A DNA stretch of 64,000 nt from Stappia indica. Lineage in GTDB: Bacteria > Pseudomonadota > Alphaproteobacteria > Rhizobiales > Stappiaceae. The stretch is from NCBI RefSeq assembly GCF_009789575.1, contig NZ_CP046908.1, positions 4,741,001-4,805,000 of the forward strand. The letters are read 5' to 3'. A model generated the notes under the pieces. That model had not been told where the DNA came from, searched no databases, and saw only the letters and a program-made list of their open reading frames with translations. The position numbers and the translations under genes are program-made. Shown here in pieces: positions 27,364 through 48,167 of the stretch (position 1 is the stretch's first letter; every line of letters begins with the position of its first letter).

Positions 27364-28905
27364 TTAGACGTTGCTGTCCGGGAATTCAGCTTTTCTGTTA
27401 GCCATGAAGCTGATCAGGGATTCGTCGATAGACGGATCGAGCGGCGGCGCCTCGTAGGATGCGAGCATCTGCTTCCACTTGCGGTTCGCCCGCCATGCAG
27501 CGTCCAGCCCGCCATCGGCGCTCCACTGTTCGTAGGAGTTGTTGTCGGCGATCTCCGAGCGATAGAAGGCGGTCTCGAAATTGCGCTGGGTGTGCATGGC
27601 GCCGAGGAAGTGGCCGCCGGGGCCGACCTCGGCAAGGGCGTCCATCGCCTGCGCTTCCTCCGAAAGATCGATGCCCTTTGCCAAAACGTGCATCATGCCG
27701 AGCTGGTCCGCATCCATCACGAACTTCTCGTAGGAGGAGCACAGGCCGCCCTCCAGCCAGCCGGCCGCATGCAGGCAGAAGTTCACCCCCGAGACGACCG
27801 TCGCCAGGATGGTCTGGGCGGATTCCTGCGCCGACTGGGCGTCCGGCGTCTTCGACGAGGTGAAGGAGCCGCCGGAGCGGAAGGGCAGGCCGGCACGGCG
27901 CGCGAGCTTGGCCGCGCCGTTGAGCAGCAGGCTGCCCTCCGGCGAACCGAAGGTGGGGGCGCCGGACTGCATCGAGATCGACGAGACGAAGGCGCCGAAG
28001 ACCACCGGCGCACCGGGGCGCACCAGCTGGGTCAGCGCGCAGCCGGCCAGCGCCTCGGCCAGCACCTGCGACAGGGTGCCGGCGACCGTGACCGGGCTCA
28101 TGGCGCCGGCCAGGATGAAGGGCGAGACGATGCAGGCCTGGTTGGCCGTCGCATAGACCTTCAGCGCGCCGAGCATGGTCGCGTCGTAGACCAGCGGCGA
28201 GTTGGCGTTGATCAGCTGGATCATCACGCAGTTCTGGTCGACGAACTCCTTGCCGAAGACCAGCTCCGCCATGGCGACGGAATCGCGCGCCCGCTCCGGC
28301 GCGGTGACCGAGCCCATGAACGGCTTGTCCGAGTATTTCAGGTGCGCGTAGACCATGTCGAAATGCCGCTTGTTGACCGGCAGGTCGACGGGCTCGCACA
28401 CTGTGCCGCCCGAATGGTGCAGCCAGGGCGAGGCGTAGGACAGCTTCACGAAATTGCGGAAGTCCTCGATGGTGCCGTAGCGCCGGCCATTGTCGAGATC
28501 GGTGACGAAGGGCGGACCGTAGACCGGCGCGAACACCGTGTTGTTGCCGCCGATGACGACGTTGCGCTCCGGGTTGCGGGCGTGCTGGACGAATTGCGCG
28601 GGCGCGGTCCTGATCAGCTCGCGCAGCATTCCTTTCGGAAAGCGCACGCGCTCGCCGGAAACGTCGGCGCCGGCCGCCCTCCAGATCGCGATGGTCTCGG
28701 GATCGTCGCGGAACTCCAGGCCGATCTCGGCCAGCAGCCGGTCGGCATTGGCCTCGATCAGCTCGGCGCCCTCGTCGCTGAGGATGTCGTAGACCGGCAG
28801 GTTGCGGGAGATATAGGGCAGGGCGCCGGCCGCCTGCGATCCGCGCCGCTTTTCCGTTCTCGCCGCCCGGCCGCGCCGTCCGGCGCGCGCTTCCTGGTCA
28901 CTCAT
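27364..28905 (-). CDS. Non-pyrrolysine MttB-family corrinoid methyltransferase (glycine betaine methyltransferase-like)
   Basis: Predicted cytoplasmic methyltransferase of 513 residues that moves a methyl group from a quaternary amine to the corrinoid protein encoded at 47460. It is collinear with the trimethylamine methyltransferase superfamily (YGPPFVTDLDNGRRYGTIEDF, GSVTAPERARDSV, GVNFCLHAAGWLEGG) but has no in-frame amber codon, so it is of the non-pyrrolysine type, whose known members act on glycine betaine, proline betaine or carnitine. Residues 8-22 are strikingly basic (RAGRRGRAARTEKRR). ATG 28905 is chosen; far upstream starts run antisense through the neighbour. Divergent from the dimethylglycine-dehydrogenase-like gene, which supports glycine betaine as substrate. 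Confidence 0.88.
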   Translation of the reverse strand: MSDQEARAGRRGRAARTEKRRGSQAAGALPYISRNLPVYDILSDEGAELIEANADRLLAEIGLEFRDDPETIAIWRAAGADVSGERVRFPKGMLRELIRTAPAQFVQHARNPERNVVIGGNNTVFAPVYGPPFVTDLDNGRRYGTIEDFRNFVKLSYASPWLHHSGGTVCEPVDLPVNKRHFDMVYAHLKYSDKPFMGSVTAPERARDSVAMAELVFGKEFVDQNCVMIQLINANSPLVYDATMLGALKVYATANQACIVSPFILAGAMSPVTVAGTLSQVLAEALAGCALTQLVRPGAPVVFGAFVSSISMQSGAPTFGSPEGSLLLNGAAKLARRAGLPFRSGGSFTSSKTPDAQSAQESAQTILATVVSGVNFCLHAAGWLEGGLCSSYEKFVMDADQLGMMHVLAKGIDLSEEAQAMDALAEVGPGGHFLGAMHTQRNFETAFYRSEIADNNSYEQWSADGGLDAAWRANRKWKQMLASYEAPPLDPSIDESLISFMANRKAEFPDSNV

Positions 28906-29187
28906 GCGCTGCAAGCCCTTTGTGCATAACTGCTGTTGGCCGTTTCCGATTGCCACTGTGCGCTGCGGGCGCACATGTCTGCGGCGCGAAAGCGTCGTCG
29001 GTTTCTCTAAAAGCGTCATGCAAAACGGGGAGGGGTGGGCGCCCCATCTTTGCGCCCGCGTGTCGTCGCGGGGATGGTGGCATGACGCAATCAGGCCACC
29101 GGGGGCCGCAAATCGTGGCGATACTGCCCGGCAAAGGCGCGCCGGCCGGCCGGCAGCTTGCGGATCCGATTGCGAAAAGGGTGGAAG

Positions 29188-31749
29188 ATGTCGGCGTTTC
29201 CGGACAAGGCACAAATCGTCATCGTCGGCCTCGGCGGCATCGTCGGCGCGTCCGTGGCGCATCATCTGCTGGAGCGCGGCTGGAGCGATGTCGTGGGCAT
29301 CGACAAGTCCGGCATCCCGACCGATATCGGCTCCACGGCCCATGCCTCCGACTTCTGCTACACGACCAGCCACGACTACCTGTCGGTCTGGACGACGCAG
29401 TATTCCATCGATTTCTTCGAGAAGATGGGCCACTACGCGCGCATCGGCGGGCTGGAAGTGGCGCGCACCGGCGACGACAGCTGGATGGAGGAGATCCGGC
29501 GCAAGGCGAGCTCCGCCAAGGCCTTCGGCACCCGCGCCCATCTGGTGACGCCGGCCGAGATCAAGCAGAAGTTCCCCCTGATCGAGGAGGGCATGGTCCA
29601 GGGCGGGCTGTTCGACCCGGACGCGGGCCTCGTCGTGCCGCGCTCGCAGACGGTCGCCGGCAAGCTGGTCGACGAGGGCGAGAAGACCGGCCGGCTGAAG
29701 GCCTTCGCCAACACGCCGGCGCAGTCGCTGATTGTCGAGGACGGGCGGATCGCCGGCGTCGTCACCCATCGCGGCACGATCCGCGCCGATCACGTCATCG
29801 TCTGCGCGGGCCTGTGGGGCCGGCTGATCGCCGAGATGGTCGGCGAGGACCTTCCCGTCATGCCGGTCGATCATCCGCTGACCTTCTTCGGGCCCTATAC
29901 CGAGTTCGAGGGCACCGGCAAGGAGATCGGCTTTCCGCTGCTGCGCGACCAGGGCAACTCCGCCTATATGCGCGACACCGGCGACCCGAAGACCACCGAG
30001 GGCGGCCAGATCGAGTGGGGCTATTACGAGACCGACGAACCGCGCCTGTGCCACCCGCGCCAGCTGCTGGAAAAGCACGAGGCGCGCCTGTCGCCCTCGC
30101 AGCGCGACCTGGAGATGGAGCAGGTGATCGGCCCGCTGGAGCGGGCGATGGAGCTGACGCCGATCCTCGGCGAGCTCGGCTACAACGAGAGCCACTCCTT
30201 CAACGGCCTCCTGCAGGTCTCCGCCGCCGGCGGGCCGTCCTGCGGCGAGAGCCAGAAGGTGCGCGGCCTGTGGTACTGCGTCGCGATCTGGGTGAAGGAC
30301 GGGCCGGGCTACGGCAAGCTGATCGCCGACTGGATCACCGACGGGCGCACCGGCATCGACCACGCCTCCATCGACTATTCCCGCTTCTATCCGCACCAGC
30401 TGACCGAGGATTTCATCGAGGGGCGCTGCTATGAGGCGGCGCAGAAGATCTACTTCCCCGCGATCCATCCGCGCGAACCCTACGCGACCGGGCGAAACGT
30501 CAAGCGCTCGCCGTTTTACGAGCGCGAGGTGGAGCTCGGCGGCCACTTCATGGAGCTCGGCGGCTGGGAGCGCGCCCATGGCTACGCCGCCAACGAGCAC
30601 CTGCTCGAGAAATACGGCGACCGCGTGCCCGAGCGGCAGAACGAGTGGGACAACAGGCACTTCTGGCGGGTGTCGAATGCCGAGCACCTCGCCATGAGCG
30701 AGGATTGCGCGATCATCAATCTCTCGCATTTCTACATGTTCGAGGTCGAGGGCCCGGACCATGTGGAGCTGCTGGAATGGCTGTGCGCGGCGAAGATCGG
30801 CGGCGACGGCAATATCGGCAAGGGCATCTACACCCATTTCCTCGACGACGAGGGCATGGTGCGGGCGGACCTCACCGTGATCCGTATGGCCGACCGCTGC
30901 CGCATCATCGACGGCGCCGATGCCGGCCCGCGCGACTTTCACTATGTCCGAAGGACGGCGCAGGACCGCGGGCTCGACGTGACGGTGACCGATGTCAGCG
31001 AGCGCTATACGACCATCGGCATCTGGGGTCCGAACGCGCGCGAGAAGCTGAAGCAGGCGGTCACGGACCCGGCCGGCCTCGAGCCGGAAAACTTCGCCTT
31101 CGCGGCGATCCGCGAGATCGAGATCGCCGGGCGCAAGGTGACGGCGCTGCGGCTGTCCTATGTCGGCGAGCAGGGCTGGGAGCTGCACATGGCATACGAG
31201 GACGGGCTGGCCGTCTGGGACGCGCTGCGGGCGCTCGGCGTCATGGCGGCGGGCGTGGAGACCTACGCCAACTCGCGGCGGCTGGAGAAGTCGCTGCGCC
31301 TGCAGAACGCCGACCTGCTGACCCAGTACAACCTCTATGAGGCGGATCTCGCCCGGCCGAAGGTCAAGGAGGCCGACTTCCGCGGCAAGGCGAAGCACCT
31401 CGACTACCGGGCGCGCGACCACCAGCCGGCGATGCTCTGCACGTTGGTGATGACCGACAATCTCGACGCGAGCGGCACGCCGCGCTATCCGGTCGGCACG
31501 CTGCCGGTGATCGATCCGGCGACGGGCAAGACCCTGGTCGATGCGCTGGGCCGGCTCTCCTACACCACCTCGATCGCCTATGGCCCGACGGTGGGCCGGA
31601 ACATCGCGCTCGCCTACCTGCCGTACGAGTATGCGGTGGTGGGCCGGAAGCTTAGCGTGGAGTATTTCTCTGAAAGCTACCCGGTCGAGGTGGCGGGCGT
31701 CGGCTACGCGCCGCTCTACGATCCGCAGAACCTGAAGCCGAGGAGTTGA
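29188..31749 (+). CDS. FAD-dependent dimethylglycine/sarcosine dehydrogenase-like protein with folate domain
   Basis: Predicted flavoprotein of 853 residues that oxidatively demethylates an N-methyl amino acid and loads the carbon onto tetrahydrofolate. Domains: FAD-binding Rossmann/DAO (IVIVGLGGIVGASVAHHLLERG at about 10-31, continuing to about 370), a middle FAO_M-type linker (about 375-430), and a GcvT-like aminomethyltransferase domain (about 440-850, EVEGPDHVELLEWLCA, LSYVGEQGWELHM). ATG 29188 is set by the Rossmann start. It is divergent from the MttB-type gene, so dimethylglycine left after the first demethylation is the expected substrate. Sarcosine or another N-methylated acid remains possible. 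Confidence 0.85.
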   Translation: MSAFPDKAQIVIVGLGGIVGASVAHHLLERGWSDVVGIDKSGIPTDIGSTAHASDFCYTTSHDYLSVWTTQYSIDFFEKMGHYARIGGLEVARTGDDSWMEEIRRKASSAKAFGTRAHLVTPAEIKQKFPLIEEGMVQGGLFDPDAGLVVPRSQTVAGKLVDEGEKTGRLKAFANTPAQSLIVEDGRIAGVVTHRGTIRADHVIVCAGLWGRLIAEMVGEDLPVMPVDHPLTFFGPYTEFEGTGKEIGFPLLRDQGNSAYMRDTGDPKTTEGGQIEWGYYETDEPRLCHPRQLLEKHEARLSPSQRDLEMEQVIGPLERAMELTPILGELGYNESHSFNGLLQVSAAGGPSCGESQKVRGLWYCVAIWVKDGPGYGKLIADWITDGRTGIDHASIDYSRFYPHQLTEDFIEGRCYEAAQKIYFPAIHPREPYATGRNVKRSPFYEREVELGGHFMELGGWERAHGYAANEHLLEKYGDRVPERQNEWDNRHFWRVSNAEHLAMSEDCAIINLSHFYMFEVEGPDHVELLEWLCAAKIGGDGNIGKGIYTHFLDDEGMVRADLTVIRMADRCRIIDGADAGPRDFHYVRRTAQDRGLDVTVTDVSERYTTIGIWGPNAREKLKQAVTDPAGLEPENFAFAAIREIEIAGRKVTALRLSYVGEQGWELHMAYEDGLAVWDALRALGVMAAGVETYANSRRLEKSLRLQNADLLTQYNLYEADLARPKVKEADFRGKAKHLDYRARDHQPAMLCTLVMTDNLDASGTPRYPVGTLPVIDPATGKTLVDALGRLSYTTSIAYGPTVGRNIALAYLPYEYAVVGRKLSVEYFSESYPVEVAGVGYAPLYDPQNLKPRS

Positions 31750-32071
31750 GGGCCGCGCGGGGATGGCGCGTTGCCCACAGCGCCTGCCACACTCTCCGGC
31801 GTCATCCCGGCCGCAGAGCCGGGATCGGCGAGCCACGGCGGTTGCGGTTTCGTTCCGGAGCGCGCCTCATACGCTCTCGGCTCTCCGATCCCGCATCTTC
31901 GCTGCGCTGCGTGCGGGATGACGAGGAGAGAGGCCGATTTGCCTTTCGCCGCTGCTCTGGCAACCAATAGGCCCCGGGTCGCGCTGCGCTTGCCCGGGGT
32001 GACGGCAGGGGGGATGTGGGCGGTGCACTTTGCGCAACAGCAACACGCCATGACGGCAACAGGGCAGAACC
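31750..32071. repeat. 322-base gap filled with dispersed imperfect palindromes
   Basis: No gene. Three hairpins are seen: ATCCCGG/CCGGGAT (31804-31825), ATCCCGCA/TGCGGGAT (31888-31919) and CCCCGGG/CCCGGGG (31972-31999). The outer motif GTCATCCCGG ... GGGATGACG is a form of the palindromic intergenic repeats scattered through many alphaproteobacterial genomes; a related element is at 58641-58791. It separates the dehydrogenase gene from the homocysteine methyltransferase gene. Confidence 0.6.
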
Positions 32072-33085
32072 ATGAGCAAGCTTGACGAACTCCTCGCGAA
32101 AAAGGGCACGCTGCTGGCCGACGGCGCGACGGGCACCAACCTCTTCGACATGGGGCTGACCTCCGGCGATCCGCCGGAGGAGTGGAACGTCACAGAGCCG
32201 GAGAAGATCCGCACCCTGCACCGCAAGTTCGTGGAAGCGGGCGCCGACATCATCCTGACCAACACGTTCGGCGCCAACCGCCACCGGCTGAAGCTGCACA
32301 AGCTGGAAGGGCGCGTGCACGAGCTGAACAAGGCGGCGGCGGAGCTGGCCCGCGAGGTGGCGGCGGAGGCCGGGCGCGAGGTGATCGTTGCCGGCTCCAT
32401 CGGCCCGACGGGCGAGCTGTTCGTCCCGCTCGGCGCGCTCACCTATGAGGAGGCGGTCGAGGCCTTCGCCGAGCAGGCGGAAGGGCTGAAGGCGGGCGGC
32501 GCCGATGTCGCCTGGATCGAGACCATGTCGGCGCCGGAGGAAATGCGCGCGGCGGCCGAAGCCGCCGCCAAGGTCGGCATGCCCTTCGTGGTGACGGCGA
32601 GCTTCGACACGGCGGGACGCACGATGATGGGCCTGCCGCCGAGCGGCCTGGCCGATCTTGCCGGCGAGTTCGCCTGCGCCCCCGTCGCCTACGGCTCGAA
32701 TTGCGGCGTCGGCGCGTCGGATCTTCTCGCCGCCGTGCTGGAAATCACCCGCGACCATCCGGACGCCATCGTCGTCGCCAAGGCGAATTGCGGCATCCCG
32801 GTCATTCGCGGCGACGAGGTGGTCTACACCGGCACGCCCGAGCTGATGGCCGACTATGCGCGGCTCGCGGTCGATGCCGGCGCGCGCATCATCGGCGGCT
32901 GCTGCGGCACGTCCTACGCCCACCTTGCGGCGATGCGCCAGGCGCTCGATGCGCATGAGAAGGGCGCGCGCCCGAGCGTCGAGGAGGTTATCGCCCGCAT
33001 CGGCCCGCTGGTCTCCCCACCCGCCGCCGCTCCCACGGAAGGCGGCGACGGCGAGGGCGGAAGGCGGCGACGAAGGAGGGGGTGA
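32072..33085 (+). CDS. Betaine-homocysteine S-methyltransferase-like protein
   Basis: Zinc-dependent homocysteine methyltransferase, 337 residues: betaine (or another methyl donor) plus homocysteine gives methionine plus dimethylglycine. DGATGTNLF at 17-25 and the zinc ligands C211 (GSNCG), C277 and C278 (GGCCGT) are present. No cobalamin domain, so it is of the BHMT/MmuM class, not MetH; S-methylmethionine as donor cannot be excluded. The C-terminus beyond about residue 318 is an acidic-glycine stretch ending in six consecutive Arg (EGGRRRRRRG), absent from ordinary BHMT. Lies in the same direction as the dehydrogenase at 29188, giving a second route from betaine to dimethylglycine. Confidence 0.88.
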   Translation: MSKLDELLAKKGTLLADGATGTNLFDMGLTSGDPPEEWNVTEPEKIRTLHRKFVEAGADIILTNTFGANRHRLKLHKLEGRVHELNKAAAELAREVAAEAGREVIVAGSIGPTGELFVPLGALTYEEAVEAFAEQAEGLKAGGADVAWIETMSAPEEMRAAAEAAAKVGMPFVVTASFDTAGRTMMGLPPSGLADLAGEFACAPVAYGSNCGVGASDLLAAVLEITRDHPDAIVVAKANCGIPVIRGDEVVYTGTPELMADYARLAVDAGARIIGGCCGTSYAHLAAMRQALDAHEKGARPSVEEVIARIGPLVSPPAAAPTEGGDGEGGRRRRRRG

Positions 33086-33126
33086 GGGGGCGGGCATCGG
33101 CCAACGCATGGTTTGAATTCTAGAGA

Positions 33127-33151
33127 ATATGCTCAACTGTATTGAGTATAT
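33127..33151. promoter_or_regulatory. Inverted repeat upstream of abiE pair (candidate operator 1)
   Basis: ATATGCTCAA (33127-33136) and TTGAGTATAT (33142-33151) match in 9 of 10 paired positions with a 5-base spacer, in a sharply AT-rich promoter region 53 bases upstream of the antitoxin start. AbiEi antitoxins repress their own promoter by binding such repeats; that link is by family knowledge. Confidence 0.5.
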
Positions 33152-33194
33152 GGGCATTTTTTCAAACTTGTTTCAGGTTTGAGTTTATCTCATA

Positions 33195-33205
33195 ATACTC
33201 AGTAT
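33195..33205. promoter_or_regulatory. Short dyad at the abiEi start codon (candidate operator 2)
   Basis: ATACTCAGTAT overlaps the start codon at 33204 and repeats the ATACTCA half-site of the upstream inverted repeat. Two sites around the promoter fit the two-site autoregulation known for AbiE systems. Confidence 0.4.
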
Positions 33206-33989
33206 GGCTGAGCAAAATGAGTCATTGCTAAACCTGCTCGAGAAAGAGCTGCCCGACGGGCTTCTGGTCGATGCGGCCTGGCTGGAAGAGCGCGGCATCG
33301 CCAGCAATCTGCGCGCCTACTACGTCAAGAGCGGCTGGTTGGAGCAGCCGGCGCGCGGCGTTTACCGACGCCCGCGCGGGAGATTGAACTGGCAACAGGT
33401 GGTGATCTCGCTCCAGACGCTGCTGTTGCGCTCGCCGTTCTTTGTCGGCGGCCGTACCTCCCTCGAACTGCAGGGGTTTTCGCACTACCTTTCGCAGGAT
33501 ATCGGAACGGTCCATCTCTACGGACCGGACAAGCCGCCCGGATGGCTGCACAAGCTCGACCTGCCGCAAGGCTTTGTCCATCACAACAGCTCGGTGCTGT
33601 TTCGCAACGACCCTGTGGCCCTTGGTCTGCACGGCATTGCCTCGGGGCACTGGGACTGGTTGTTGACGGTGTCGCGGCCCGAACGTGCCTATCTGGAAAT
33701 GCTGGACGAACTGCCCGGCAGGGAGAGCTTTCATCAGGCCGACATGATCATGCAGGGAGCCGCGAGTTTCAGCCCCCGGCGCCTGCAGAAGCTGCTGCTC
33801 GACTGCAAGAGCGTGAAGGTGAAACGTCTCTTCTTCTTTTTCGCCGATCGTCATCGCCACTCCTGGCTGAAGCGCCTTGAGATGGGAAAAATCGATCTGG
33901 GCGAGGGAAAGCGCGTTCTCGTTCCCGGTGGCCGGCTCGATCCGGTCTATCGGATAACCGTGCCGAGGGACCTCGATGCCGTTTCATGA
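33204..33989 (+). CDS. AbiEi-type antitoxin of a type IV toxin-antitoxin system
   Basis: Predicted antitoxin/autorepressor, 261 residues. The N-terminal part (about 5-95) is a winged helix-turn-helix of the AbiEi_3 N-terminal type, containing GLLVDAAWLEERGIASNLRAYYVKSGWLEQPARGVYRRP; the C-terminal antitoxin domain follows (about 100-255). Overlaps the toxin gene by 14 bases. GC content and codon choice are lower than in flanking genes, and the promoter is AT-rich, suggesting acquisition by transfer. Family knowledge: AbiEi neutralises the toxin without contacting it and represses the operon. Confidence 0.85.
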   Translation: MAEQNESLLNLLEKELPDGLLVDAAWLEERGIASNLRAYYVKSGWLEQPARGVYRRPRGRLNWQQVVISLQTLLLRSPFFVGGRTSLELQGFSHYLSQDIGTVHLYGPDKPPGWLHKLDLPQGFVHHNSSVLFRNDPVALGLHGIASGHWDWLLTVSRPERAYLEMLDELPGRESFHQADMIMQGAASFSPRRLQKLLLDCKSVKVKRLFFFFADRHRHSWLKRLEMGKIDLGEGKRVLVPGGRLDPVYRITVPRDLDAVS

Positions 33990-34893
33990 CCGGTATCGGG
34001 CGCAGGTCCGGCTCCTCTTGCGCCTCCTGCCCATCGTGGCACGCGAACCATGCTTCGCTCTCAAGGGCGGCACGGCGATCAACCTGTTCGTTCGGGATCT
34101 TCCGCGCCTGTCGGTGGACATCGACCTGATGTATCTGCCCAGACACCGCAGAAAAGAGGCACTTGCCGGCATCGACGCGGCCATGAGCCGTGTGGAAGCA
34201 GCGGCGCTGGCGGAGTTGCCCGGCGCGCGCTTGACGGGGAAGGTACAGGAAGGGGCAAGGCTGAACCTGCTGGTGATGGCGAGCGGTGCGCAGGTCAAGA
34301 TCGAGGTGTCGCCAGTGCTGAGAGGCGTCGTCCACGAACCGTCTCTCGTTCCGGTTACCGCGATGGTTGAAGACGTGTTCGGATATGCGGAGACGAGTGT
34401 TGTCTCCTTCGAAGACCTCTTTGCGGGAAAGTTGGTTGCTGCACTGGATCGCCAGCATCCGCGCGACCTTTTCGATGTCCGGGAGTTGTTTGCGAATGAA
34501 GGTCTGACGGATGGATTGCGCGAAGCTTTCATCGTCTACCTGCTCAGCCACAACCGGCCGATGGGGGAGGTGCTGTCGGGGCGCCCGAAGGACCTTGCGA
34601 ACGAGTATCGCAATGGGTTCGACGGAATGACCGAGGAGATCGTCGCAATCGACGATCTGATCGAGACGCGGCGGGAAATGATCGACTTGCTGATCGGAGG
34701 GATGCCCGACCGGCACCGGGCGTTCCTGATCGGGTTCGAACGTGGGGCTCCCGATTGGTCGCTGCTCCACCTGCCCGATATCGCCGACCTTCCGGCAATA
34801 CGCTGGCGGCAGAGAAATCTCGATAAGCTCACCCCGGCTCAACGCTCGTCACTTGTCGACTTGCTGCATGACTCGCTTGAGCGGCGGGCCTGA
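33976..34893 (+). CDS. AbiEii-type nucleotidyltransferase toxin
   Basis: Predicted toxin, 305 residues, of the DUF1814/AbiEii nucleotidyltransferase family. The active-site motifs are intact: LKGGTAIN (K30-G-G-T33) and LSVDIDLMY with S46, D48 and D50; DLFAGKLVAALDRQHPRDLFDVREL is the second family signature, including the catalytic Lys and Asp. Related toxins modify tRNA or bind GTP and give phage-induced growth arrest. Start overlaps the antitoxin gene by 14 bases. It converges with a small kinase gene (stop at 34901). Confidence 0.9.
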   Translation: MPFHDRYRAQVRLLLRLLPIVAREPCFALKGGTAINLFVRDLPRLSVDIDLMYLPRHRRKEALAGIDAAMSRVEAAALAELPGARLTGKVQEGARLNLLVMASGAQVKIEVSPVLRGVVHEPSLVPVTAMVEDVFGYAETSVVSFEDLFAGKLVAALDRQHPRDLFDVRELFANEGLTDGLREAFIVYLLSHNRPMGEVLSGRPKDLANEYRNGFDGMTEEIVAIDDLIETRREMIDLLIGGMPDRHRAFLIGFERGAPDWSLLHLPDIADLPAIRWRQRNLDKLTPAQRSSLVDLLHDSLERRA

Positions 34894-34900
34894 TCCTACC

Positions 34901-36208: not shown

Positions 36209-36210
36209 GC

Positions 36211-36816: not shown

Positions 36817-36834
36817 GGGGAAACTCCGGCGAAG

Positions 36835-36865: not shown

Positions 36866-36884
36866 GTCTTGCTGGCGGTGCGGC

Positions 36885-40250: not shown

Positions 40251-40505
40251 AGCCTGCTGGTGTGGTGCGAACCGGGGGGGCGAAAACTGGAGTGTAGAAA
40301 TCATGAATTTTTACAAGCGTCCACGCCGCGGCGGAAAATCCTGACGATTTTGCTCATGAATTCACGGGTGCGCTTACCTCAGGTTTAGGAGGCGCGGAAA
40401 GGTTCGCTTCATGGGCGAGGGGCGGGCGCTCACGCGCCGCCGCCTGTTCCCCCGATCACGAGACTGTGCGCTGGCGCTGCCACGATCTTCCGCTAGGCTT
40501 TGCTG

Positions 40506-41423: not shown

Positions 41424-41435
41424 GCGGCGGGTCCG

Positions 41436-43475
41436 CTAGCCGCGCCGTCGCCGCCGGCGGCGCCCACCGTCGCCATCTTCGTCCGAGCCCTCGCTCGCCG
41501 CGCGCGGCTCTGGCAGCGTCACCGCCTCGCGCAGCTTGACGAAGGGATCCACCTTGTTGGGGATCGCCATCGCGTTGACGAAATGCTCCTGGAAGCGCGG
41601 CTCCAGCGCGGTCTCGATCTTCTCGATCTCGCGCACGACACGCTCGACCGTGCGCCGCTCGCCGCGATTGACCAGCGCCATGCGCGCGCCGGTGCCGGCG
41701 GCATTGCCGACGCTCGCGACATGGGCAAGGTCGCAATCGGGGATCAGCCCGAGGATCATCGCGTATTTGGTGTCGATATAGCTGCCGAAGGCACCGGCAA
41801 GGCGAATGCGCTCGATGGGCGGATTGCCGAGCTTGTCGGAAAGCAGCTGGATGCCGGCATAGAGCGCGGCCTTGGCGAGCTGGATGGCGCGGATGTCGGT
41901 CTGGGTGATGGTGAGCTCGATGCCCTCGCTCGCCACCACATAGGCGAAGGTGCGCCCCTTGCGCACCACGCGGGGAGAGCGCTCGGCAAGCGCGCCGTCG
42001 ATCAGCCCGTCCACGGTGATGACGCCGGCAAGATAGAGCTCGGCGACCGCCTCGATGATGCCGGAGCCGCAAATGCCGGTGACGCCGACCTGGTCCTTCT
42101 TTTCCGCAAACTCCGGATCGTCCGACCATTCGTCGAGGCCGATCACCTTGAAGCGCGGCTCGAGCGTGACCGGATCGATGCGGATGCGCTCGATGGCGCC
42201 GGGCGCCGCGCGCTGGCCGCAGGAAATCTCCGCGCCTTCGAAGGCCGGGCCCGTCGGGGAACTTGCCGCCAGCAGCCGGTCGCGATTGCCGAGAATGATC
42301 TCGGCATTGGTGCCGATGTCGACGACCAGCGTCAGGGCTTCGGCCTCGAACGGGCGGGTGGAGAGCGTCGCGGCGGCAGCATCCGCGCCGACATGGCCGG
42401 CGATGCAGGGCAGGATATAGGCGCGCGCGCCGGGATTGAGCTCCAGCCCGAGCTCGGAAGCCGGGACATGCACGGCCCCCGACACGGCAAGGGCGAAGGG
42501 CGCGCCGCCCAGCTCCGTCGGATCGATGCCGAGGAAGAGGTGGTGCATGATCGGGTTGCCGACGAAGACGGCGTCCATGACGTCCGCGCGGGTCGCGCCG
42601 ACATCAGCGACCAGCTTGGCGACCAGCGCGTCGACCGCCGCGCGCACCGCGGAGACGAGATCGGGCAGGCGCGCCGGGTTCATCTGCACGTAGGAGACGC
42701 GCGACATCAGGTCTTCGCCGAAGCGGATCTGCGGGTTCGAGGTGCCGGCCGAGGTGACGGTGCGGCCATTGGCGAGATCGCAGAGATGCGCGGCGATGGT
42801 GGTGGAGCCGATATCGACGGCAAGGCCGTAGACGGTCGTCTTCTCGCCCGGCCACAGGGCGGTAACGCGCGGGGGAAAGCCGCCGTCCTGCCAGATGGCG
42901 GCGGTGACGCGCCAGTGGCCGGCGCGCAGCACCTTCTGAACCTTGGCCAGCAGGGGCGGATCGAGGCTGAGGCCGGACAATCCGGAGGCTTCGGCAACGG
43001 CGGCGAGCAGCCGGTCGCCGTCGCCAAGCGGCTGTTCCATGTCCGGCTCGCCGACCTCGACGGTGACGAGGCGAATGGCGCTGTCGGGCGCGACGGTGAC
43101 GTTCTCGGCGCGCTTTCGCACCACCTGGCGATTGGTCTGCGCCTCCATCGGCACATCGACCACCATGTCGCCGAGGATGGCGGCCTGGCAGGACAGGCGC
43201 CGGCCTTCGGGAAGGCCGCGCAGGGAGACGTAGCGCGCTTCCGCGTCGGTCACCGGGCCGAGATGGTCCGCCGTGCTGACGATCTGCTCCTTGGCGAAGG
43301 CGCCTTCGGAGACGGCGACCTGGCAGCGGCCGCAGATGCCGCGCCCGCCGCACACGGATTCCACATAGACGCCGAGCGCGCGCGCAGCATCGAGCAGCGG
43401 CGTGCCGAGCGGGAACGTGCCCCGCCGGCCGCTCGGCTGGAAAACGATCTTCGCCGTTTCGGGCGTCTCGCTCAT
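41436..43475 (-). CDS. Corrinoid reductive activator, RamA/RACE-like (ferredoxin plus ASKHA ATPase)
   Basis: Predicted protein of 679 residues that restores oxidised Co(II) corrinoid to Co(I) using ATP, keeping the methyltransferase system active. An N-terminal [2Fe-2S] domain has C42-x5-C48-x2-C51 and C96 (VCGGRGICGRCQV); a linker follows, then an ASKHA ATPase domain (DUF4445 type) from about residue 205 with AVDIGSTTIAAHL, LVVDIGTNAEIILG and VTGICGSGIIEAVAELYLAG. The C-terminus adds an acidic run then seven Arg (DEDGDGGRRRRRRRG). Last gene of the reverse one-carbon block, 32 bases after the folate:corrinoid methyltransferase gene. Confidence 0.9.
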   Translation of the reverse strand: MSETPETAKIVFQPSGRRGTFPLGTPLLDAARALGVYVESVCGGRGICGRCQVAVSEGAFAKEQIVSTADHLGPVTDAEARYVSLRGLPEGRRLSCQAAILGDMVVDVPMEAQTNRQVVRKRAENVTVAPDSAIRLVTVEVGEPDMEQPLGDGDRLLAAVAEASGLSGLSLDPPLLAKVQKVLRAGHWRVTAAIWQDGGFPPRVTALWPGEKTTVYGLAVDIGSTTIAAHLCDLANGRTVTSAGTSNPQIRFGEDLMSRVSYVQMNPARLPDLVSAVRAAVDALVAKLVADVGATRADVMDAVFVGNPIMHHLFLGIDPTELGGAPFALAVSGAVHVPASELGLELNPGARAYILPCIAGHVGADAAAATLSTRPFEAEALTLVVDIGTNAEIILGNRDRLLAASSPTGPAFEGAEISCGQRAAPGAIERIRIDPVTLEPRFKVIGLDEWSDDPEFAEKKDQVGVTGICGSGIIEAVAELYLAGVITVDGLIDGALAERSPRVVRKGRTFAYVVASEGIELTITQTDIRAIQLAKAALYAGIQLLSDKLGNPPIERIRLAGAFGSYIDTKYAMILGLIPDCDLAHVASVGNAAGTGARMALVNRGERRTVERVVREIEKIETALEPRFQEHFVNAMAIPNKVDPFVKLREAVTLPEPRAASEGSDEDGDGGRRRRRRRG

Positions 43476-43507
43476 GGCCTCGCCCGTCCTCGTTGTCGCC
43501 CGTTCGT

Positions 43508-44464
43508 TCAAGTGCTGGCCCGCCGTCGTCCCTCGCGTCCGCCGCGCCGTCCGGAGCTGCCGGAGGCAGAGGCGGGAGCGGCCGCCGGGCCGCCTTCCGC
43601 GCCCGGCTTGTAGTCGCGATAGGTCATGATCCAGTCGGAACAGTTGGGGTCGTTGCCGGTCAGGACGTTGGCGGCGCGCACCGCCTCCATCTCCTGCGGG
43701 CGGCAGGGGTTCATGATGGCGCTGGTCATGCCGGCGCCGATCACCATCGGGATGAAGCCGGCATTGATGCCGTGCCGGTGAGGCAGGCCGAAGGAGATGT
43801 TGGAGAGGCCGCAGGTGGTGTTGACCTTCAGCTCCTCGCGCAGCCGGCGGAGCAGGCGGAAGACCTGCTGGCCGGCGCTGCCCATGGCGCCGATCGGCAT
43901 GACCAGCGGATCGACGACGATGTCATGGGCGGGAATGCCGTAATCGGCGGCGCGCTCGACGATCTTCTTGGCCACCGCAAAGCGCACGTCCGGGTCTTCC
44001 GAAATGCCGGTCTCGTCGTTGGAAATGGCAACGACCGGCACGTTGTATTTCTTCACGAGCGGCAGGATCGCCTCGAGCTTTTCCTCCTCGCCGGTGACCG
44101 AATTGACCAGGGGGCGGCCCTTGGCGACCCGAAGGCCGGCCTCGATGGCGGCGGTCACCGAACTGTCGATGGACAGCGGCACGTCGACGAGGCTTTGTAC
44201 GATCTCCAGCGTCCTGACCAGCAGCGGGGGCTCGGTCTCGTTGGGATTGACGGCGGTGACGCCGGCATTGACGTCGAGCATGGTGGCGCCGGCGGCGACC
44301 TGGGCGAGCGCGTCCCTCTCGACGGTCGAGAAGTCGCCGGCGATCATCTCGGCGGCGAGCTTCTTGCGCCCCGTCGGGTTGATCCGCTCGCCGATCACGC
44401 AGAACGGCTGGTCGAAGCCGATGACGATCTCGCGGGTGGCCGAGGCGACGATGGTACGGGTCAT
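43508..44464 (-). CDS. Methyltetrahydrofolate:corrinoid methyltransferase (MtgA/MtvA-like, DHPS fold)
   Basis: Pterin-binding methyltransferase of 318 residues that would move methyl groups between the corrinoid protein and tetrahydrofolate. The dihydropteroate-synthase-like barrel is clear: FCVIGERINPTGRKKL, GATMLDVNAGV, PLSIDSSVTAAIEAG, AISNDETGISEDP, DIVVDPLVMPIG and TTCGLSNISFGLPHR. The catalytic barrel ends near residue 280; a low-complexity Ala/Ser/Gly linker and basic tail (SGRRGGREGRRRAST) follow. Start overlaps the MetF stop (ATGA at 44461-44464), so the two are coupled and the methyl-H4folate made here can be oxidised at once. Confidence 0.9.
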   Translation of the reverse strand: MTRTIVASATREIVIGFDQPFCVIGERINPTGRKKLAAEMIAGDFSTVERDALAQVAAGATMLDVNAGVTAVNPNETEPPLLVRTLEIVQSLVDVPLSIDSSVTAAIEAGLRVAKGRPLVNSVTGEEEKLEAILPLVKKYNVPVVAISNDETGISEDPDVRFAVAKKIVERAADYGIPAHDIVVDPLVMPIGAMGSAGQQVFRLLRRLREELKVNTTCGLSNISFGLPHRHGINAGFIPMVIGAGMTSAIMNPCRPQEMEAVRAANVLTGNDPNCSDWIMTYRDYKPGAEGGPAAAPASASGSSGRRGGREGRRRAST

Positions 44465-45357
44465 TGAGCTACCTCTGCGGGAAAAGTCTCGGCGCCAGCG
44501 GCGGGAAACGTCCAGCTCCCGCGGGCACTGAGCCAGTCGGCCGTCTTGGTCAGGCCGCCGAAGGGAAAGACGTGGATCTGCTGCAGCCGGGTCTCGGGCT
44601 GGGTCTGCACACGCAGCTCCAGCGGGCCGACCATGCTCTCCGGATCGTAGCCCGACAGCATGGAGACGACGGCGCCGCCCCGCTTCTTCAGGAAGGAGAG
44701 CGAGTTCTCCACCCCGGCGAAGGCGGCGTATTTCAGCAGTGTGGTCATCTTGGCCGGGCCGGCGACGCCGATATGCACGGGGAAGCGGTTGCCCCAGGCG
44801 GCGATCTCGTCGAGCCAGAGGCTGACCTTCTGCGGATCGAAGCCGAACTGGGTGACGATGTGGAACTCCGCGTCGCTTTGCGAGGCGAGCTCGTGCTTGC
44901 GCAGCAGGAAGGCACGGATGGTCTCGCGCGAGATCTCCGGCGCGCCCTCCGGATGGCCGGCAACCGCGATGCGGGTGATGCCGAGCCGGTCGAACAGGCC
45001 CGTCTCGATCATCGCGACGGAGGAGGCGATGGGGCCGGGCGTCGGCGCCTCGCCGGCCACCGCCAGCACCTCCCGCACGCCGGCTTCCGCGACGAGGCGG
45101 GTCAGCCGGTACTCGAAGGCGACGAGCGAGGGATAGCGGCGCGCGGCCATGTGCGGCACGGCAACGAGGCCGGCATCGGTGACCTTGCGGGCGGCGCGGA
45201 CGATGTCGTCCTCCCCGACATTGCCGAGATCGGTGAGGTAAAGCCGCGTGCCGGCGGGGACGAGACGGAGCAGCTCCGGCTTCTCCACCACCTGGCGGGG
45301 CGACATTTCCGTGGAGGCGGCAAGGCGCCCGAAATCGTTGAGGCGGTGGTCGGTCAT
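44461..45357 (-). CDS. Methylenetetrahydrofolate reductase family protein (MetF-like)
   Basis: Flavin-dependent TIM-barrel enzyme, 298 residues, interconverting methyl- and methylene-tetrahydrofolate. Segments PHMAARRYPSLVAFEYRL, REVLAVAGEAPTPGPIASS, FHIVTQFGFDPQKVSLWLDEI and VHIGVAGPAKMTTLLKYA fit the MetF barrel; the N-terminal Glu region is divergent from the biosynthetic MetF, suggesting a dedicated catabolic form running in the oxidative direction. ATGA overlaps at both ends tie it to the small 'virulence factor' gene upstream and the methyltransferase gene downstream. Confidence 0.87.
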   Translation of the reverse strand: MTDHRLNDFGRLAASTEMSPRQVVEKPELLRLVPAGTRLYLTDLGNVGEDDIVRAARKVTDAGLVAVPHMAARRYPSLVAFEYRLTRLVAEAGVREVLAVAGEAPTPGPIASSVAMIETGLFDRLGITRIAVAGHPEGAPEISRETIRAFLLRKHELASQSDAEFHIVTQFGFDPQKVSLWLDEIAAWGNRFPVHIGVAGPAKMTTLLKYAAFAGVENSLSFLKKRGGAVVSMLSGYDPESMVGPLELRVQTQPETRLQQIHVFPFGGLTKTADWLSARGSWTFPAAGAETFPAEVAQ

Positions 45358-45698
45358 GTCGCCGGTCCCGTGCTGGCGTGGTCGGGAGAGGGGGAGGCGG
45401 CCGCATCAAAGCCTTCGGCTGCGACGAGCGCCGCAAGCCGCTCCGGCGGATAGGCCTCAACGAGGGCGGTGAGCGCCGCCTCCGCTTCGGCCTCGAGATC
45501 GTCGCCGACCGCGACGGGATCGCCCCGCCGCCACTCGGCCAGATAGGCATCGCTGTCCTTGGCGCCGACGCGCATGGCGCAGCGGTCGACAGCCTGGATG
45601 AAGCGTTCGGGGAGTTCGCGGCGGGCGCTGGCGCGGCCGGCCCGGACCAGCACCTGGGCCGGGATGTCACGCCAGTAGACGATGGTTTTCTGCGCCAA
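45354..45698 (-). CDS. Small 'virulence factor' (PF13769-type) protein
   Basis: Predicted 114-residue cytoplasmic protein starting (L/M)AQKTIVYWRDIPAQVLVRAGRASARRELPERF and running to an acidic C-terminus. It resembles the short alphaproteobacterial family named 'virulence factor' for historical reasons; no activity is known to me. The start is a TTG at 45698 with AGGG about 12 bases upstream; no ATG precedes the conserved block in a sensible place. ATGA overlap with MetF implies work in the same process. The conserved YWRDIPAQV opening and stable linkage to corrinoid/folate genes make it a candidate accessory factor. Confidence 0.75.
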   Translation of the reverse strand: MAQKTIVYWRDIPAQVLVRAGRASARRELPERFIQAVDRCAMRVGAKDSDAYLAEWRRGDPVAVGDDLEAEAEAALTALVEAYPPERLAALVAAEGFDAAASPSPDHASTGPAT

Positions 45699-45889
45699 GG
45701 GAGAAGCCCTGCAAACCGGCCGGGAACGCCTCTCGCTCCCGCACTTTCGAGCATCATGATGCCTTCGGCCGGCCATCTCATCGGTGCACAGACGACACCG
45801 GAAAGTCAGAAAGCGACAGCGGCGGGACGCGCGGAAAGCCGGGCTTTCGGCGGGCACGAGGAAAGCGGCAGACGGGCGCTCGAAAGCGA

Positions 45890-45926
45890 CACGCCCGCCG
45901 GGTGCTTTAGGCTCCCGGCGGGCGTG
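45890..45926 (-). terminator. Strong hairpin downstream of catB
   Basis: CACGCCCGCCGGG (45890-45902) and CCCGGCGGGCGTG (45914-45926) pair perfectly over 13 bp with an 11-base loop, 26 bases past the catB stop. It separates catB from the virulence factor-MetF-methyltransferase-activator genes, which therefore probably have their own promoter in 45699-45889. Confidence 0.7.
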
Positions 45927-45951
45927 CCTGTCGTTGTGCGGGGCGTGAGGA

Positions 45952-46599
45952 TCAGCCCTGTGGCCGGTCTTTCGATTCCGTCTTCCAGCGGGCATGCAGG
46001 CCGGCGATGTCGCCCGAGCACAGGTTGCGCATCTCGCGGCCGATCCGCTCGATCGGCCAGTCCCACCACGCCATCTCGAGCAGCATGGCGATCTCCTCGT
46101 CGGAGAAGCGCTTGCGGATCTCGCGCGCCGGGTTGCCGGCGACGATGGCGTAGGGGGGAACGTCCTTCGTGACGACGGCTCGGCTGCCGATCATCGCGCC
46201 GTGGCCGATGCGGATGCCGGGCATGATCATCGCTTCCGCGCCGATCCACACGTCGTTGCCGACGACCGTGTCGCCGGACGGACGGTAGCCGCTCTCCGCA
46301 TCGGCGAAGGCGGGCTCCTCCGACATGAAGAAGAACGGGAAGGTGGAGATCCAGTCCATCCGGTGGCCCTGGTTGCCCGCCATCATGAAGCAGGCGCCGG
46401 TGCCGATGGAGCAGAAGCTGCCGATGACCAGCCGGTCGACATCGTCGCGGTCGGGTATCAGGTAGCGGGCGCAGTCGTCGAAGGAATGGCCGTGATAATA
46501 GCCGGAATAGTAGCTGTAGCGGCCGACCGAAATGTTGGGGTTGGTCACCTGCTCGCTCAGCAGCTTGCCCTTGAAGGGGCTTTCGAAAAAATTGCTCAC
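45952..46599 (-). CDS. catB: Type B chloramphenicol O-acetyltransferase (xenobiotic acetyltransferase)
   Basis: Hexapeptide-repeat acyltransferase of 215 residues. [67 protein letters not shown] and the tail [17 protein letters not shown] follow chromosomal CatB proteins of Agrobacterium and Pseudomonas almost word for word. The catalytic His is H79 (NQGHR). The start is GTG at 46599, giving the conserved (M)SNFFESPF N-terminus. It probably confers acetylation of chloramphenicol or related alcohols; its natural substrate may differ. It sits, oddly, within the one-carbon block between DUF1638 and MetF genes, followed by its own hairpin. Confidence 0.92.
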
Positions 46600-46787
46600 G
46601 GGAGGTCGTCCTCTGTCGCGAGGCTGGGCCCTTTCCGGCCCGTTGGATGGGATGAGGGGACCGGTCCTGCGGCTCATGCCACGCAGACCCGTCCGTGCCG
46701 CCGGGACCGCGCTTCTAGCATGCGGACGAGGCGGCGCAAGGACACGGATGCAACAGGGGCGTGCAAAGCGGCGGCGGGCGCGCGGGA

Positions 46788-47456
46788 TCAGGTACTGAGC
46801 GTGGTGAGGCGCGTTTCCAGCAGGCCGTAGCCGGTGACCCGCTTGGCATAGGCAAGGCCGAGCCGCTCGGCCGCCGCGCGGGCGCGCGCCTCGATGTCCG
46901 GATCCGCCGCCTGTTCCAGGTAGAGCAGGCGGGTGTAGTTGCCGAAATAGGCGTCGCGCAGCTCGGGGTAGCTGTCGAGCCCGAGCGGGCGGATCACCAG
47001 CGTCTCGAAATGGCGGGCGAGGAAATCGGTGAGGTAGAAGGTGCCGGGCTCGGCCTCGGCTTCCGCATCGAAGACCTCGAGGCCGGCGAAGAAGGCGTAG
47101 CAATGGGCGCCCTCGATCCGCTCCACCCCTTCCTCGGCCAGAACCTTGTCGAGCAGCCCGCCGGTGCCGCAATCGCCGTAGCCGACGAGGATGCGGGTGT
47201 GGTCGCGCTTCGCCTTGCGGATCTCGGCGCGCACGGCGGCCGGGATCTTCTCCGGGCGGTTGTGCAGCTGCGCCGGCAGGCAGTGCAGCTCCACATGGGT
47301 GAGGCCGTTGGCCTCGATGATGGCGAGGATCTCGCGGGCGAGCGCGCCGCAGGCGATGACCTTCACCTTTTCACGGGCGGTGCCGGGCGCCTCGGCAAGA
47401 CGGGCGGCGGCCTGTGCCGTCCCACCTCCACCCGCGCCCGGAAGCACCGCCTGCAT
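46788..47456 (-). CDS. DUF1638 family protein
   Basis: Predicted cytoplasmic protein, 222 residues. After a 30-residue Gly/Ala-rich leader the conserved domain begins [22 protein letters not shown] and contains several Cys and His ([36 protein letters not shown]). DUF1638 genes accompany corrinoid methyltransferase genes in bacteria and methanogens, but the activity is unknown to me. It starts 3 bases after the stop of the corrinoid protein gene, so the two are co-transcribed. A role in metal or corrinoid handling would fit the conserved Cys/His; this is inference. Confidence 0.85.
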
Positions 47457-47459
47457 GGC

Positions 47460-48167
47460 TCAGCCCGCCCGCGCCGCCAGCTGGTTGTGCTTGCGCGCGA
47501 TCAGGTCCTTGGCGAGCTCGACGGTGACGGCCGCGTCGCGCCCATAGGCATCGGCGCCGATGGCCTGGCTGAACTCCTCGTTGAGCGGCGCGCCGCCGAC
47601 CATGACGATGTAGTCGTCACGGATGCCCTTCTCGATCATCGTGTCGATGACGACCTTCATGTAGGGCATGGTAGTGGTCAGGAGGGCCGACATGCCGAGA
47701 ATGTCCGGCTTGTGCTCCTCGATGGCCGCGAGATAGTTCTCGACCGGGTTGTTGATGCCGATGTCGATCACCTCGAAGCCGGCGCCCTCCATCATCATCG
47801 AGACGAGGTTCTTGCCGATGTCGTGGATGTCGCCCTTGACGGTGCCGATGACCATCTTGCCGACCTTCGGCGCGCCGGTCTCGGCCAGCAGCGGGCGCAG
47901 CAGCCCCATGCCCGCCTTCATGGCATTGGCCGACATCAGCACTTCCGGCACGAAGAGAATGCCGTCGCGGAAGTCGACGCCGACGATGCGCATGCCTTCG
48001 ACCAATGCCTCGGTGAGGATCGCGTAGGGCGTCCAGCCGCGCTCCAGCAGGATCTCCACGCTCTCGACGATTTCGTCCTTGAGGCCATCGTAGAGATCGT
48101 CATGCATCTGCTCGACGAGTTCCTCGTCCGACAGCGACCTGAGATCGAGATCGTCTTCTTGCGACAT
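47460..48167 (-). CDS. Corrinoid protein (MtgC/MttC-like) of a methyltransferase system
   Basis: Cobalamin-binding methyl carrier, 235 residues. Residues about 1-100 form the four-helix cap (LVEQMHDDLYDGLKDEIVESVEILLERGW), and the Rossmann B12-binding domain carries D113-x-H115-x-x-G118 (GDIHDIGKN), the His being the lower axial cobalt ligand; MMMEGAGFEVIDIGINNP and VMVGGAPLNEEFSQAIGADAY complete the domain. It should take a methyl group from the MttB-family enzyme (27364) and give it to the folate methyltransferase (43508). GGAG precedes ATG 48167. First gene of the reverse block; a miniature transposon ends 123 bases upstream. Confidence 0.93.
   Translation of the reverse strand: MSQEDDLDLRSLSDEELVEQMHDDLYDGLKDEIVESVEILLERGWTPYAILTEALVEGMRIVGVDFRDGILFVPEVLMSANAMKAGMGLLRPLLAETGAPKVGKMVIGTVKGDIHDIGKNLVSMMMEGAGFEVIDIGINNPVENYLAAIEEHKPDILGMSALLTTTMPYMKVVIDTMIEKGIRDDYIVMVGGAPLNEEFSQAIGADAYGRDAAVTVELAKDLIARKHNQLAARAG

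What the first reader, a model, noticed from the sequence alone, without database searches (positions are those of the whole stretch)
27364..48167. Arginine-rich terminal tails shared by four enzymes of the corrinoid/betaine methyl-transfer set
Seen: the MttB-family enzyme (27364-28905) begins with RAGRRGRAARTEKRR; the BHMT-like enzyme (32072-33085) ends GGDGEGGRRRRRRG; the RamA-like activator (41436-43475) ends SDEDGDGGRRRRRRRG; the folate:corrinoid methyltransferase (43508-44464) ends SGSSGRRGGREGRRRAST. The enzymes are unrelated in fold and the tails lie outside the catalytic domains. The Arg runs use mixed codons (agg, cgg, cga, cgc), so they are not simple DNA slippage but look kept at protein level. 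MetF, the corrinoid carrier and other window proteins lack them. Inference: the tails may gather these enzymes on RNA, membrane or a shared scaffold so that reactive Co(I) and methyl-corrinoid intermediates are passed locally.
Basis: partly seen in the sequence, partly recalled or inferred. Interest (0 to 1): 0.82.

Follow-up and report, generated by a model that had tools for sequence, protein, structure and literature searches.

The report
Arginine tails mark corrinoid carrier's partners
In many aerobic alphaproteobacteria, the unrelated enzymes that pass methyl groups to or from one shared vitamin-B12 carrier protein bear conserved arginine-rich tails, and the carrier bears a conserved acidic arm, which suggests a docking system that holds a split methionine synthase / betaine demethylase together.

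Summary
The four proteins are MtgB (MttB-type), MtgD (folate:corrinoid methyltransferase), MtgE (annotated BHMT) and RamA of the known MtgBCDE split methionine synthase / glycine betaine methyltransferase. Their Arg-rich tails are kept in orthologues: RamA 79/79, MtgD 76/76, MtgE 28/28, MtgB 52/52 at the named loci where found, plus 29/29 MtgD and 29/29 MtgE from the wider class. Arginine is kept even at about 33% G+C, where RamA and MtgE use more lysine overall, and its codons vary. In 742 predicted genes of this genome the two C-terminal motifs occur only on MtgD, MtgE and RamA. MttB-family copies are tailed too (49/49 readable). Relatives serving other carriers lack the tails: MetH-type homocysteine proteins (20/20) and second corrinoid systems in genomes that also hold the tailed one. 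MtgC has no tail but a conserved acidic N-terminal arm (63/64 and 31/31), not found in eight carriers of tail-less systems. Most likely the tails dock every client on MtgC, replacing the covalent linkage of MetH. Binding is inferred, not shown; RNA, membrane or an adaptor (PF13769, DUF1638) remain rivals. I found no description of the tails in the papers searched.

The parts
28819..28905 (-). MtgB (MttB family) N-terminal Arg-rich tail, residues 1-29
   Evidence: kept in 52 of 52 orthologues and in 49 of 49 readable family copies
27364..28905 (-). MtgB, betaine-type methylamine:corrinoid methyltransferase (PF06253)
33041..33082 (+). MtgE C-terminal tail GGDGEGGRRRRRRG
32072..33085 (+). MtgE, homocysteine module (PF02574; NF005718 betaine--homocysteine S-methyltransferase)
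   Evidence: role from PMC12478193
41439..41486 (-). RamA C-terminal tail SDEDGDGGRRRRRRRG
41436..43475 (-). RamA-like reductive activator (Fer2 + RACo domains)
43511..43564 (-). MtgD C-terminal tail SGSSGRRGGREGRRRAST; R306 R307 G308 G309 R310 invariant in 21 aligned orthologues after a variable linker
   Evidence: model pLDDT under 50 for 281-318
43508..44464 (-). MtgD, methyltetrahydrofolate:corrinoid methyltransferase (PF00809; NF005719)
44461..45357 (-). MetF2 (methylenetetrahydrofolate reductase-like, weak MTHFR match), no tail
   Evidence: name from PMC12478193
45354..45698 (-). PF13769 ('Virulence_fact') small protein, no tail; candidate adaptor
   Evidence: co-occurs with MtgD in 51 of 56 MtgD-positive genomes
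46788..47456 (-). DUF1638 protein, no tail; candidate adaptor or reactivation factor
47460..48167 (-). MtgC corrinoid carrier (B12-binding), no tail
48108..48167 (-). MtgC acidic N-terminal arm, MSQEDDLDLRSLSDEELVEQ

Best explanation
The tails are disordered docking handles for one shared carrier. MtgB, MtgD, MtgE and RamA must each present a reaction chamber to the same corrinoid protein, MtgC. In classical MetH the homocysteine, folate and reactivation modules are covalently fused to the cobalamin module; in MtgBCDE they are separate chains. Each client ends in a variable flexible linker followed by an Arg-rich peptide (RRxGGRxARR type on MtgB and MtgD, R5-7 type on MtgE and RamA). This peptide binds reversibly to the acidic N-terminal arm and first helix of MtgC (consensus about MSxEDDLDLxxLDDEELVEQMHDDLYDGL). 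Tethering raises the local concentration of all clients, lets them swap on MtgC, and keeps reactive Co(I) and methyl-corrinoid with its partners in an aerobic cell. Shown: tail conservation, selection for arginine, restriction to MtgC clients among the proteins examined, the conserved acidic arm, and joint absence of arm and tails in related systems. Inferred: direct binding, tethering and protection from oxygen.
For: Tails on all four client families at 80 named loci and across the class. Genome G646, same phylum but another class, has a 77% identical MtgC with the arm and tails on RamA, MtgD and MtgB. Arg kept at about 33% G+C. Synonymous codon change under constant Arg. MttB-family copies tailed, 49 of 49 readable. 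Motifs confined to these families among 742 and 1303 predicted genes. Negative controls: MetH-type homocysteine proteins 20 of 20 without tail, G402 and G454 also having a tailed MtgE; second corrinoid systems without tails in genomes G580, G575, G374 and G490, whose MtgC-system partners are tailed. MtgC has no tail, median pI 4.45, net -9 to -17 in its first 45 residues in 31 of 31, arm pattern 63 of 64 against 0 of 8 carriers of tail-less systems.
Against: No binding was tested. The first helices of tail-less corrinoid proteins in the PDB are acidic too, so only the arm discriminates. The MtgC model was poor (mean pLDDT 63), so no surface patch could be mapped. Client cores are themselves acidic, so simple charge balancing is possible. 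Related systems run the same chemistry without tails. P. inhibens Bmt (MtgE) works alone in vitro (passages of PMC12366255). Exceptions: RamA of G344 has its basic stretch followed by about 25 more residues, so it is not terminal; one distant RamA homologue (L247) has a Lys/Arg-rich end without being an obvious MtgC client; the tail-less L386 partners are still somewhat basic at their ends (MtgD paralogue 5 Arg per 12, from its core end). By mere count the MtgD tails of many rhizobia are modest (29 of 76 have 4 Arg per 12, as do or exceed 64 of 742 background genes); there the motif, not the count, is the evidence.
Confidence: 0.48

Rival explanations
1. A dedicated small adaptor, not MtgC, reads the tails: the PF13769 protein or DUF1638, both encoded near mtgC or mtgD and both tail-less, hold clients and MtgC together.
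For: In 289 genomes PF13769 is in 51 of 56 MtgD-positive genomes and 3 of 233 others; DUF1638 in 49 of 56 and 4 of 233. P. inhibens DUF1638 mutants are rescued by methionine (PMC5764234, passages).
Against: PF13769 is nearly neutral and DUF1638 only mildly acidic. Among the tool's 14 control genomes PF13769 also rings in Bacillus subtilis and DUF1638 in Methanosarcina acetivorans; tails were not looked for there. A second DUF1638 lies in the tail-less system of L386. I found no motif in either that is tied to the tails, but did not search for one systematically.
Confidence: 0.2
2. The Arg tails gather the enzymes on a generic polyanion (RNA, polyphosphate, acidic lipid) or in a condensate, and MtgC comes along by its own contacts.
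For: Arg/Gly-rich disordered peptides commonly bind RNA and phosphate (general knowledge, no call). Arg is preferred over Lys even at low G+C. The MtgD tail is predicted disordered.
Against: A generic polyanion does not explain why tails follow the identity of the carrier, nor why MtgC and MetF2 have none. The carrier is strongly acidic and would be repelled.
Confidence: 0.18
3. The tails tune stability, solubility or turnover of individual enzymes and have no joint role.
For: Tails lie outside the Pfam catalytic domains for MtgD, MtgE and RamA, and the solved glycine betaine methyltransferase chain 9YCE begins at the core.
Against: Four unrelated folds, both termini, all tied to one carrier and absent from relatives serving other carriers in the same genomes.
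Confidence: 0.09
4. Composition artefact of a high-G+C genome or simple repeat slippage.
For: The window is 68% G+C and Arg is 7.3% of residues in the sampled genes.
Against: Arg kept at 32-34% G+C, synonymous codon turnover inside the Arg run, motif order far above shuffled tails, and rarity on other sampled proteins.
Confidence: 0.02

Closest known systems
MtgBCDE split methionine synthase / glycine betaine methyltransferase of Ruegeria pomeroyi and Phaeobacter inhibens (PMC12478193; PMC5764234)
   Same: Same modules: MtgB, MtgC, MtgD, MtgE, MetF2, RamA, DUF1638; by family assignment this locus is a member.
   Different: The tails and the MtgC arm are not mentioned in the parts I read; in the main text of PMC12478193 'arginine', 'tail', 'terminus' and 'disordered' have 0 hits. 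In PMC5764234 only 'arginine-rich' was searched, 0 hits.
Classical MetH (cobalamin-dependent methionine synthase)
   Same: Same homocysteine, folate, cobalamin logic; MtgE, MtgD and MtgC match successive segments of the TIGR02082 MetH model.
   Different: Modules fused; separate MetH-type homocysteine proteins of the class have no Arg tail (20 of 20).
Glycine betaine methyltransferase MtgB/MtgC of Desulfitobacterium hafniense and MttB/MttC of Methanosarcina (organisms of the PDB entries recalled)
   Same: Same methyl-transfer chemistry; MtgB core matches chains 2QNE and 9YCE.
   Different: 9YCE has 2 and 2QNE 15 chain residues before the match, which begins at residue 36 or 31 of this MtgB, so no comparable tail in 9YCE; the NCBIfam MtgC models begin at about residue 15 of this MtgC, so no arm.
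Short docking or targeting tails in general (encapsulin cargo peptides, polyketide docking domains); recalled, no call
   Same: A disordered linker plus a short conserved terminal peptide shared by unrelated enzymes.
   Different: Arg-rich, at either terminus, and with the shared carrier itself as the likely receptor.

Membership tests
MtgBCDE split methionine synthase / GBT methyltransferase | MtgC corrinoid carrier of the aerobic clade, MtgD, MtgE, PF06253 MtgB, RamA and DUF1638 encoded together | tested here: met
   Pfam and NCBIfam assignments in the window; at 80 named RamA loci: MtgD 76, DUF1638 68, MtgC 65, MtgB 52, MtgE 28 within the fetched flank
MtgBCDE split methionine synthase / GBT methyltransferase | Required for methionine synthesis and for growth on glycine betaine | not testable with these tools
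   Shown for mtgC and mtgD mutants of R. pomeroyi (PMC12478193, Results part 1), not in Stappia; this genome also has a MetH-type frame
Short linear docking motif | Conserved short block after a variable, disordered linker, on otherwise unrelated proteins | tested here: met
   MtgD R306-R310 invariant after a variable linker, pLDDT under 50; motif counts against shuffles
Short linear docking motif | A defined receptor that binds the motif | not testable with these tools
   MtgC arm proposed from joint presence and absence only
RNA-binding RGG/RS-type tails | RNA binding, or repeats of RGG or RS | tested here: inconclusive
   Tails are single short blocks, not long repeats; RNA binding not tested
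MetH | Modules fused in one chain | tested here: not met
   Separate ORFs

The most novel reading that the evidence does not exclude
A carrier-specific tail-and-arm code: aerobic bacteria that split methionine synthase into separate chains replaced covalent domain fusion with Arg tails on every client, at whichever terminus is free, and a matching acidic arm on the corrinoid carrier. Any new methyltransferase can join the hub by gaining the tail, which would explain the spread of many MttB copies feeding one MtgC. The same code would let one find unknown clients of a carrier by reading termini.
Probability: 0.4. Interest if true: 0.87.

Novelty: new variant of a known kind. Interest (0 to 1): 0.73.

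Why it matters
How separate chains of a split methionine synthase hand a reactive Co(I)/methyl-corrinoid between four enzymes in an aerobic cell is open; this gives a concrete, testable answer. [quoted passage not shown] If the code holds, tails at either end would flag methyltransferases that use the MtgC hub, would place the many uncharacterised MttB copies in this pathway, and would give a portable tag for building methyl-transfer cascades. Constructs that tag or trim these termini may lose activity for this reason.

Tried and rejected
Own-genome DNA pattern for G-R6-G-stop gave two places: MtgE and one (L031) antisense inside what looks, by eye, like a transporter permease gene; rejected as spurious. 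Composition artefact: rejected. One motif shared by all four families: not found; two types exist, GGR.[AGS]R on MtgB/MtgD and RRRRR on MtgE/RamA. Acidic first helix as a distinguishing receptor: not distinctive, as PDB homologues are acidic there too; only the arm is. Structure of MtgC: alignment too uniform, model not usable, so no fold search was made. SAR11 Bhmt as a negative control: 14 homocysteine-type loci were fetched, but 9 of 14 were not read by my motif and none was identified as Bhmt, so no claim is made. Distant RamA homologues: 14 fetched, 13 C-termini read, 12 without tail, L247 Lys/Arg-rich. Distant MtrH homologues: of L261-L264 and L266, L263 and L264 were read without tail, L262 was re-read in L387 without tail, L261 and L266 gave no match. 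MTTB copies: 50 of 88 places in 26 genomes were fetched (the tool's best 30 plus 20 that I chose from the low-scoring end), plus the second copy of this genome (L114); L221 is cut by a contig end, and L246 was not aligned, though its start as read is also Arg-rich. My first longest-frame reading of these loci picked wrong frames for many and was replaced. Tail-less loci L389 and L391 have MttB-like partners whose N-termini could not be read. My first arm check on six carriers used starts chosen by eye, wrongly short for L387 and L388; one search repeats it on the whole upstream frame (45 residues) of eight carriers, 0 of 8 with the arm pattern. The gene caller for the controls is my own and misses genes (it missed MtgB in the window).
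Full report
What the window holds. The window is from a Stappia-like genome (G000, one contig of 5.1 Mb; the nearest named relatives are Stappia strains, 97% in RamA). The four proteins of the finding are, by Pfam and NCBIfam, an MTTB-family enzyme, a homocysteine methyltransferase (NF005718), a RACo/RamA-type activator with a 2Fe-2S domain, and a pterin-binding folate:corrinoid methyltransferase. With the B12 carrier at 47460-48167, a MetF-like protein at 44461-45357, DUF1638 and a PF13769 protein they form the system described as MtgBCDE, at once a split methionine synthase and a glycine betaine methyltransferase (Mausz 2025, PMC12478193: abstract, Results part 1 of 2 and Discussion read; Price 2018, PMC5764234: passages seen). 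In those papers MtgC is the shared core, MtgD works both ways, MtgE is the homocysteine module and a homologue of the S. meliloti Bmt, and RamA and DUF1638 go with reactivation. So the 'BHMT' here is best called MtgE.

Observation. The tails are as stated, with mixed Arg codons. Of RamA, 79 C-termini are complete and 79 of 79 have 6 to 8 Arg in a 12-residue window of the last 30 (the 80th runs off its contig inside the run). MtgD: 76 of 76 have 4 or more, 47 have 5 or more. MtgE: 28 of 28 have 5 or more. MtgB: 47 of 52 have 4 or more; the other 5 have 3 per 12 but the same RRGRG/S..AAARRAAR block. For comparison, 64 of 742 genes of this genome have 4 or more, and 13 of 742 have 5 or more, at the C-terminus. 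In the wider class, 29 of 29 further MtgD end in an Arg-rich block by inspection, and 29 of 29 further MtgE have 5 or more per 12.

Selection for arginine. In genome G358 (loci 32-34% G+C) MtgE ends NSNRRTRRRR, RamA RTSRQNRRRRS and MtgD ARAGRQRARRRG, although RamA (35 Arg, 46 Lys) and MtgE (13, 21) have more Lys than Arg overall; MtgD has not (21, 17). Of six low-G+C genomes read, one RamA (G344) is an exception: its basic stretch is followed by about 25 further residues. In the window and nine relatives that I listed, the Arg run of RamA is seven residues in 10 of 10 while its codons change freely; other relatives have six. Within tails the order of residues is far from random: GGR.[AGS]R in 72 of 76 MtgD tails against 2.9 after shuffling, RRRRR in 56 of 79 RamA tails against 1.4 and in 12 of 28 MtgE tails against 0.1. 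Orthologues are related, so these counts are not independent events. MtgB and MtgD share the GGRxxR type at opposite ends of unrelated folds (MtgB 16 of 52, further copies 15 of 49); RamA and MtgE share the R5 type.

Rarity elsewhere. In 742 predicted genes of this genome, 5 have 6 or more Arg per 12 at the C-terminus: MtgE, RamA, MtgD and two unrelated proteins. GGR.[AGS]R in the last 30 occurs once (MtgD) and RRRRR twice (MtgE, RamA); neither occurs in the first 45 residues of any, but MtgB was not among the 742. In 1303 predicted genes of the 80 loci the two motifs at a terminus occur only in the four families, and the DUF1638, PF13769, MtgC and MetF families show no tails.

Tails follow the carrier. 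First, MttB-family copies: in 26 genomes of one family (f74, unnamed; I take it for Rhodobacteraceae) with up to eight copies each, 50 of 88 places were fetched; with the second copy of this genome, 49 of 49 readable N-termini have 4 or more Arg per 12, including copies that score only 110-164 bits, and one 50, against MtgB. Mausz et al. suggest that such copies feed the same route. Second, the homocysteine protein of MetH-type synthases, a homologue of MtgE, has no tail in 20 of 20 cases that I chose from the listing (at most 4 Arg per 12, neither motif), including genomes G402 and G454 that also have a tailed MtgE. Third, second corrinoid systems (L386 of G580, L387 of G490, L388 of G575, L390 of G374) have MtgC-like carriers of 42-49% identity and partners without the tails. 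In L386 a 63% identical MtgD paralogue ends CKRWMKRCRRLAAEAA (5 Arg per 12, all before the tail position) and a 53% identical RamA paralogue ends KSASRAKQRCREGSKNRTELQ, basic but without either motif. The MtgC systems of those same genomes are tailed: MtgD and RamA of G580, MtgD, RamA and MtgB of G575, MtgD, RamA, MtgE and MtgB of G374, and MtgD of G490. Fourth, genome G646, of another class, has a 77% identical MtgC and tails on RamA, MtgD and MtgB. Fifth, the solved chain 9YCE (glycine betaine methyltransferase) begins at the core, while 4YYC, the closest solved chain, carries the N-tail.

The carrier's arm. MtgC has no Arg tail (65 of 65 have at most 4 Arg per 12 at the C-terminus; 31 of 31 have at most 3). 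It has the lowest median pI of the set (4.45). Its first 20 residues form a conserved acidic arm: pattern present in 63 of 64 named loci (65 found, one short hit dropped; L080 is read without it), net charge -5 to -9 in the first 20, and net -9 to -17 over the first 45 in 30 of 30 from the class and in G646. On the whole upstream frame, 0 of 8 MtgC-like carriers of tail-less systems have the pattern, and the corresponding 20 residues carry -4 to +2. Alignments to 1Y80 and to the NCBIfam MtgC models begin at about residues 15-19. Arm and tails are thus present and absent together. The acidic first helix is not itself distinctive.

Mechanism. I infer that the tails dock the clients on MtgC, most likely on the arm, by many weak Arg-carboxylate contacts through disordered linkers (the MtgD tail is predicted disordered). 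This does for separate chains what fusion does in MetH: high local concentration and fast exchange of partners. Protection of Co(I) from oxygen is a further guess. Two co-conserved small proteins could be adaptors instead: PF13769 and DUF1638 track MtgD across 289 genomes (51 of 56 and 49 of 56 against 3 and 4 of 233). MtgC at 71% identity or more is found in 50 of 55 other MtgD-positive genomes; the five misses are draft assemblies in 120 to 660 contigs. RNA or membrane binding was not tested and cannot be excluded.

In print. Full-text searches (listings seen) and word searches inside PMC12478193, PMC12366255 and PMC7154762 (passages seen) showed no mention of the tails or the arm. The library holds open-licence papers only and supplements were not available, so this is not proof of absence. 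The Pfam MTTB and NCBIfam NF005718 profiles already span tail positions, so the sequences are in public models.

Verdict.

Noticed in passing
window 45354-45698 (-): The PF13769 'Virulence factor' protein tracks the Mtg system: in 51 of 56 MtgD-positive genomes and 3 of 233 others. The family name is misleading here; it looks like an unstudied Mtg accessory.
   Followed up: partly
L386 (G580:C57:15001-35000): A second, tail-less Mtg-like system with two MtgC-like carriers, an MtgD paralogue, a RamA paralogue and DUF1638, in a genome that also has the tailed one.
   Followed up: partly
G000:C1 about 1449886 (L145): The genome also encodes a MetH-type synthase in a long open frame (1361 codons), so it seems to have both fused and split methionine synthases.
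   Followed up: no
window 33204-34893 (+): An AbiEi/AbiEii type IV toxin-antitoxin pair lies directly after mtgE.
   Followed up: no
window 45952-46599 (-): A hexapeptide-repeat transferase-like gene sits between DUF1638 and PF13769 in this cluster.
   Followed up: no
L247 (G039:C26:2300-3000): A distant RamA homologue (37% identity) ends in a Lys/Arg-rich stretch although it belongs to another clade.
   Followed up: no
L334 (G344:C91:30001-43922): RamA of G344 has its basic stretch followed by about 25 further residues, unlike the other RamA read.
   Followed up: partly
window 29188-31749 (+), 16913-21467 (+), 59446-61116 (-): Around the cluster lie a dimethylglycine-dehydrogenase-like protein, sarcosine-oxidase-type subunits and formate--tetrahydrofolate ligase, apparently the rest of a betaine-to-C1 pathway.
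   Followed up: no
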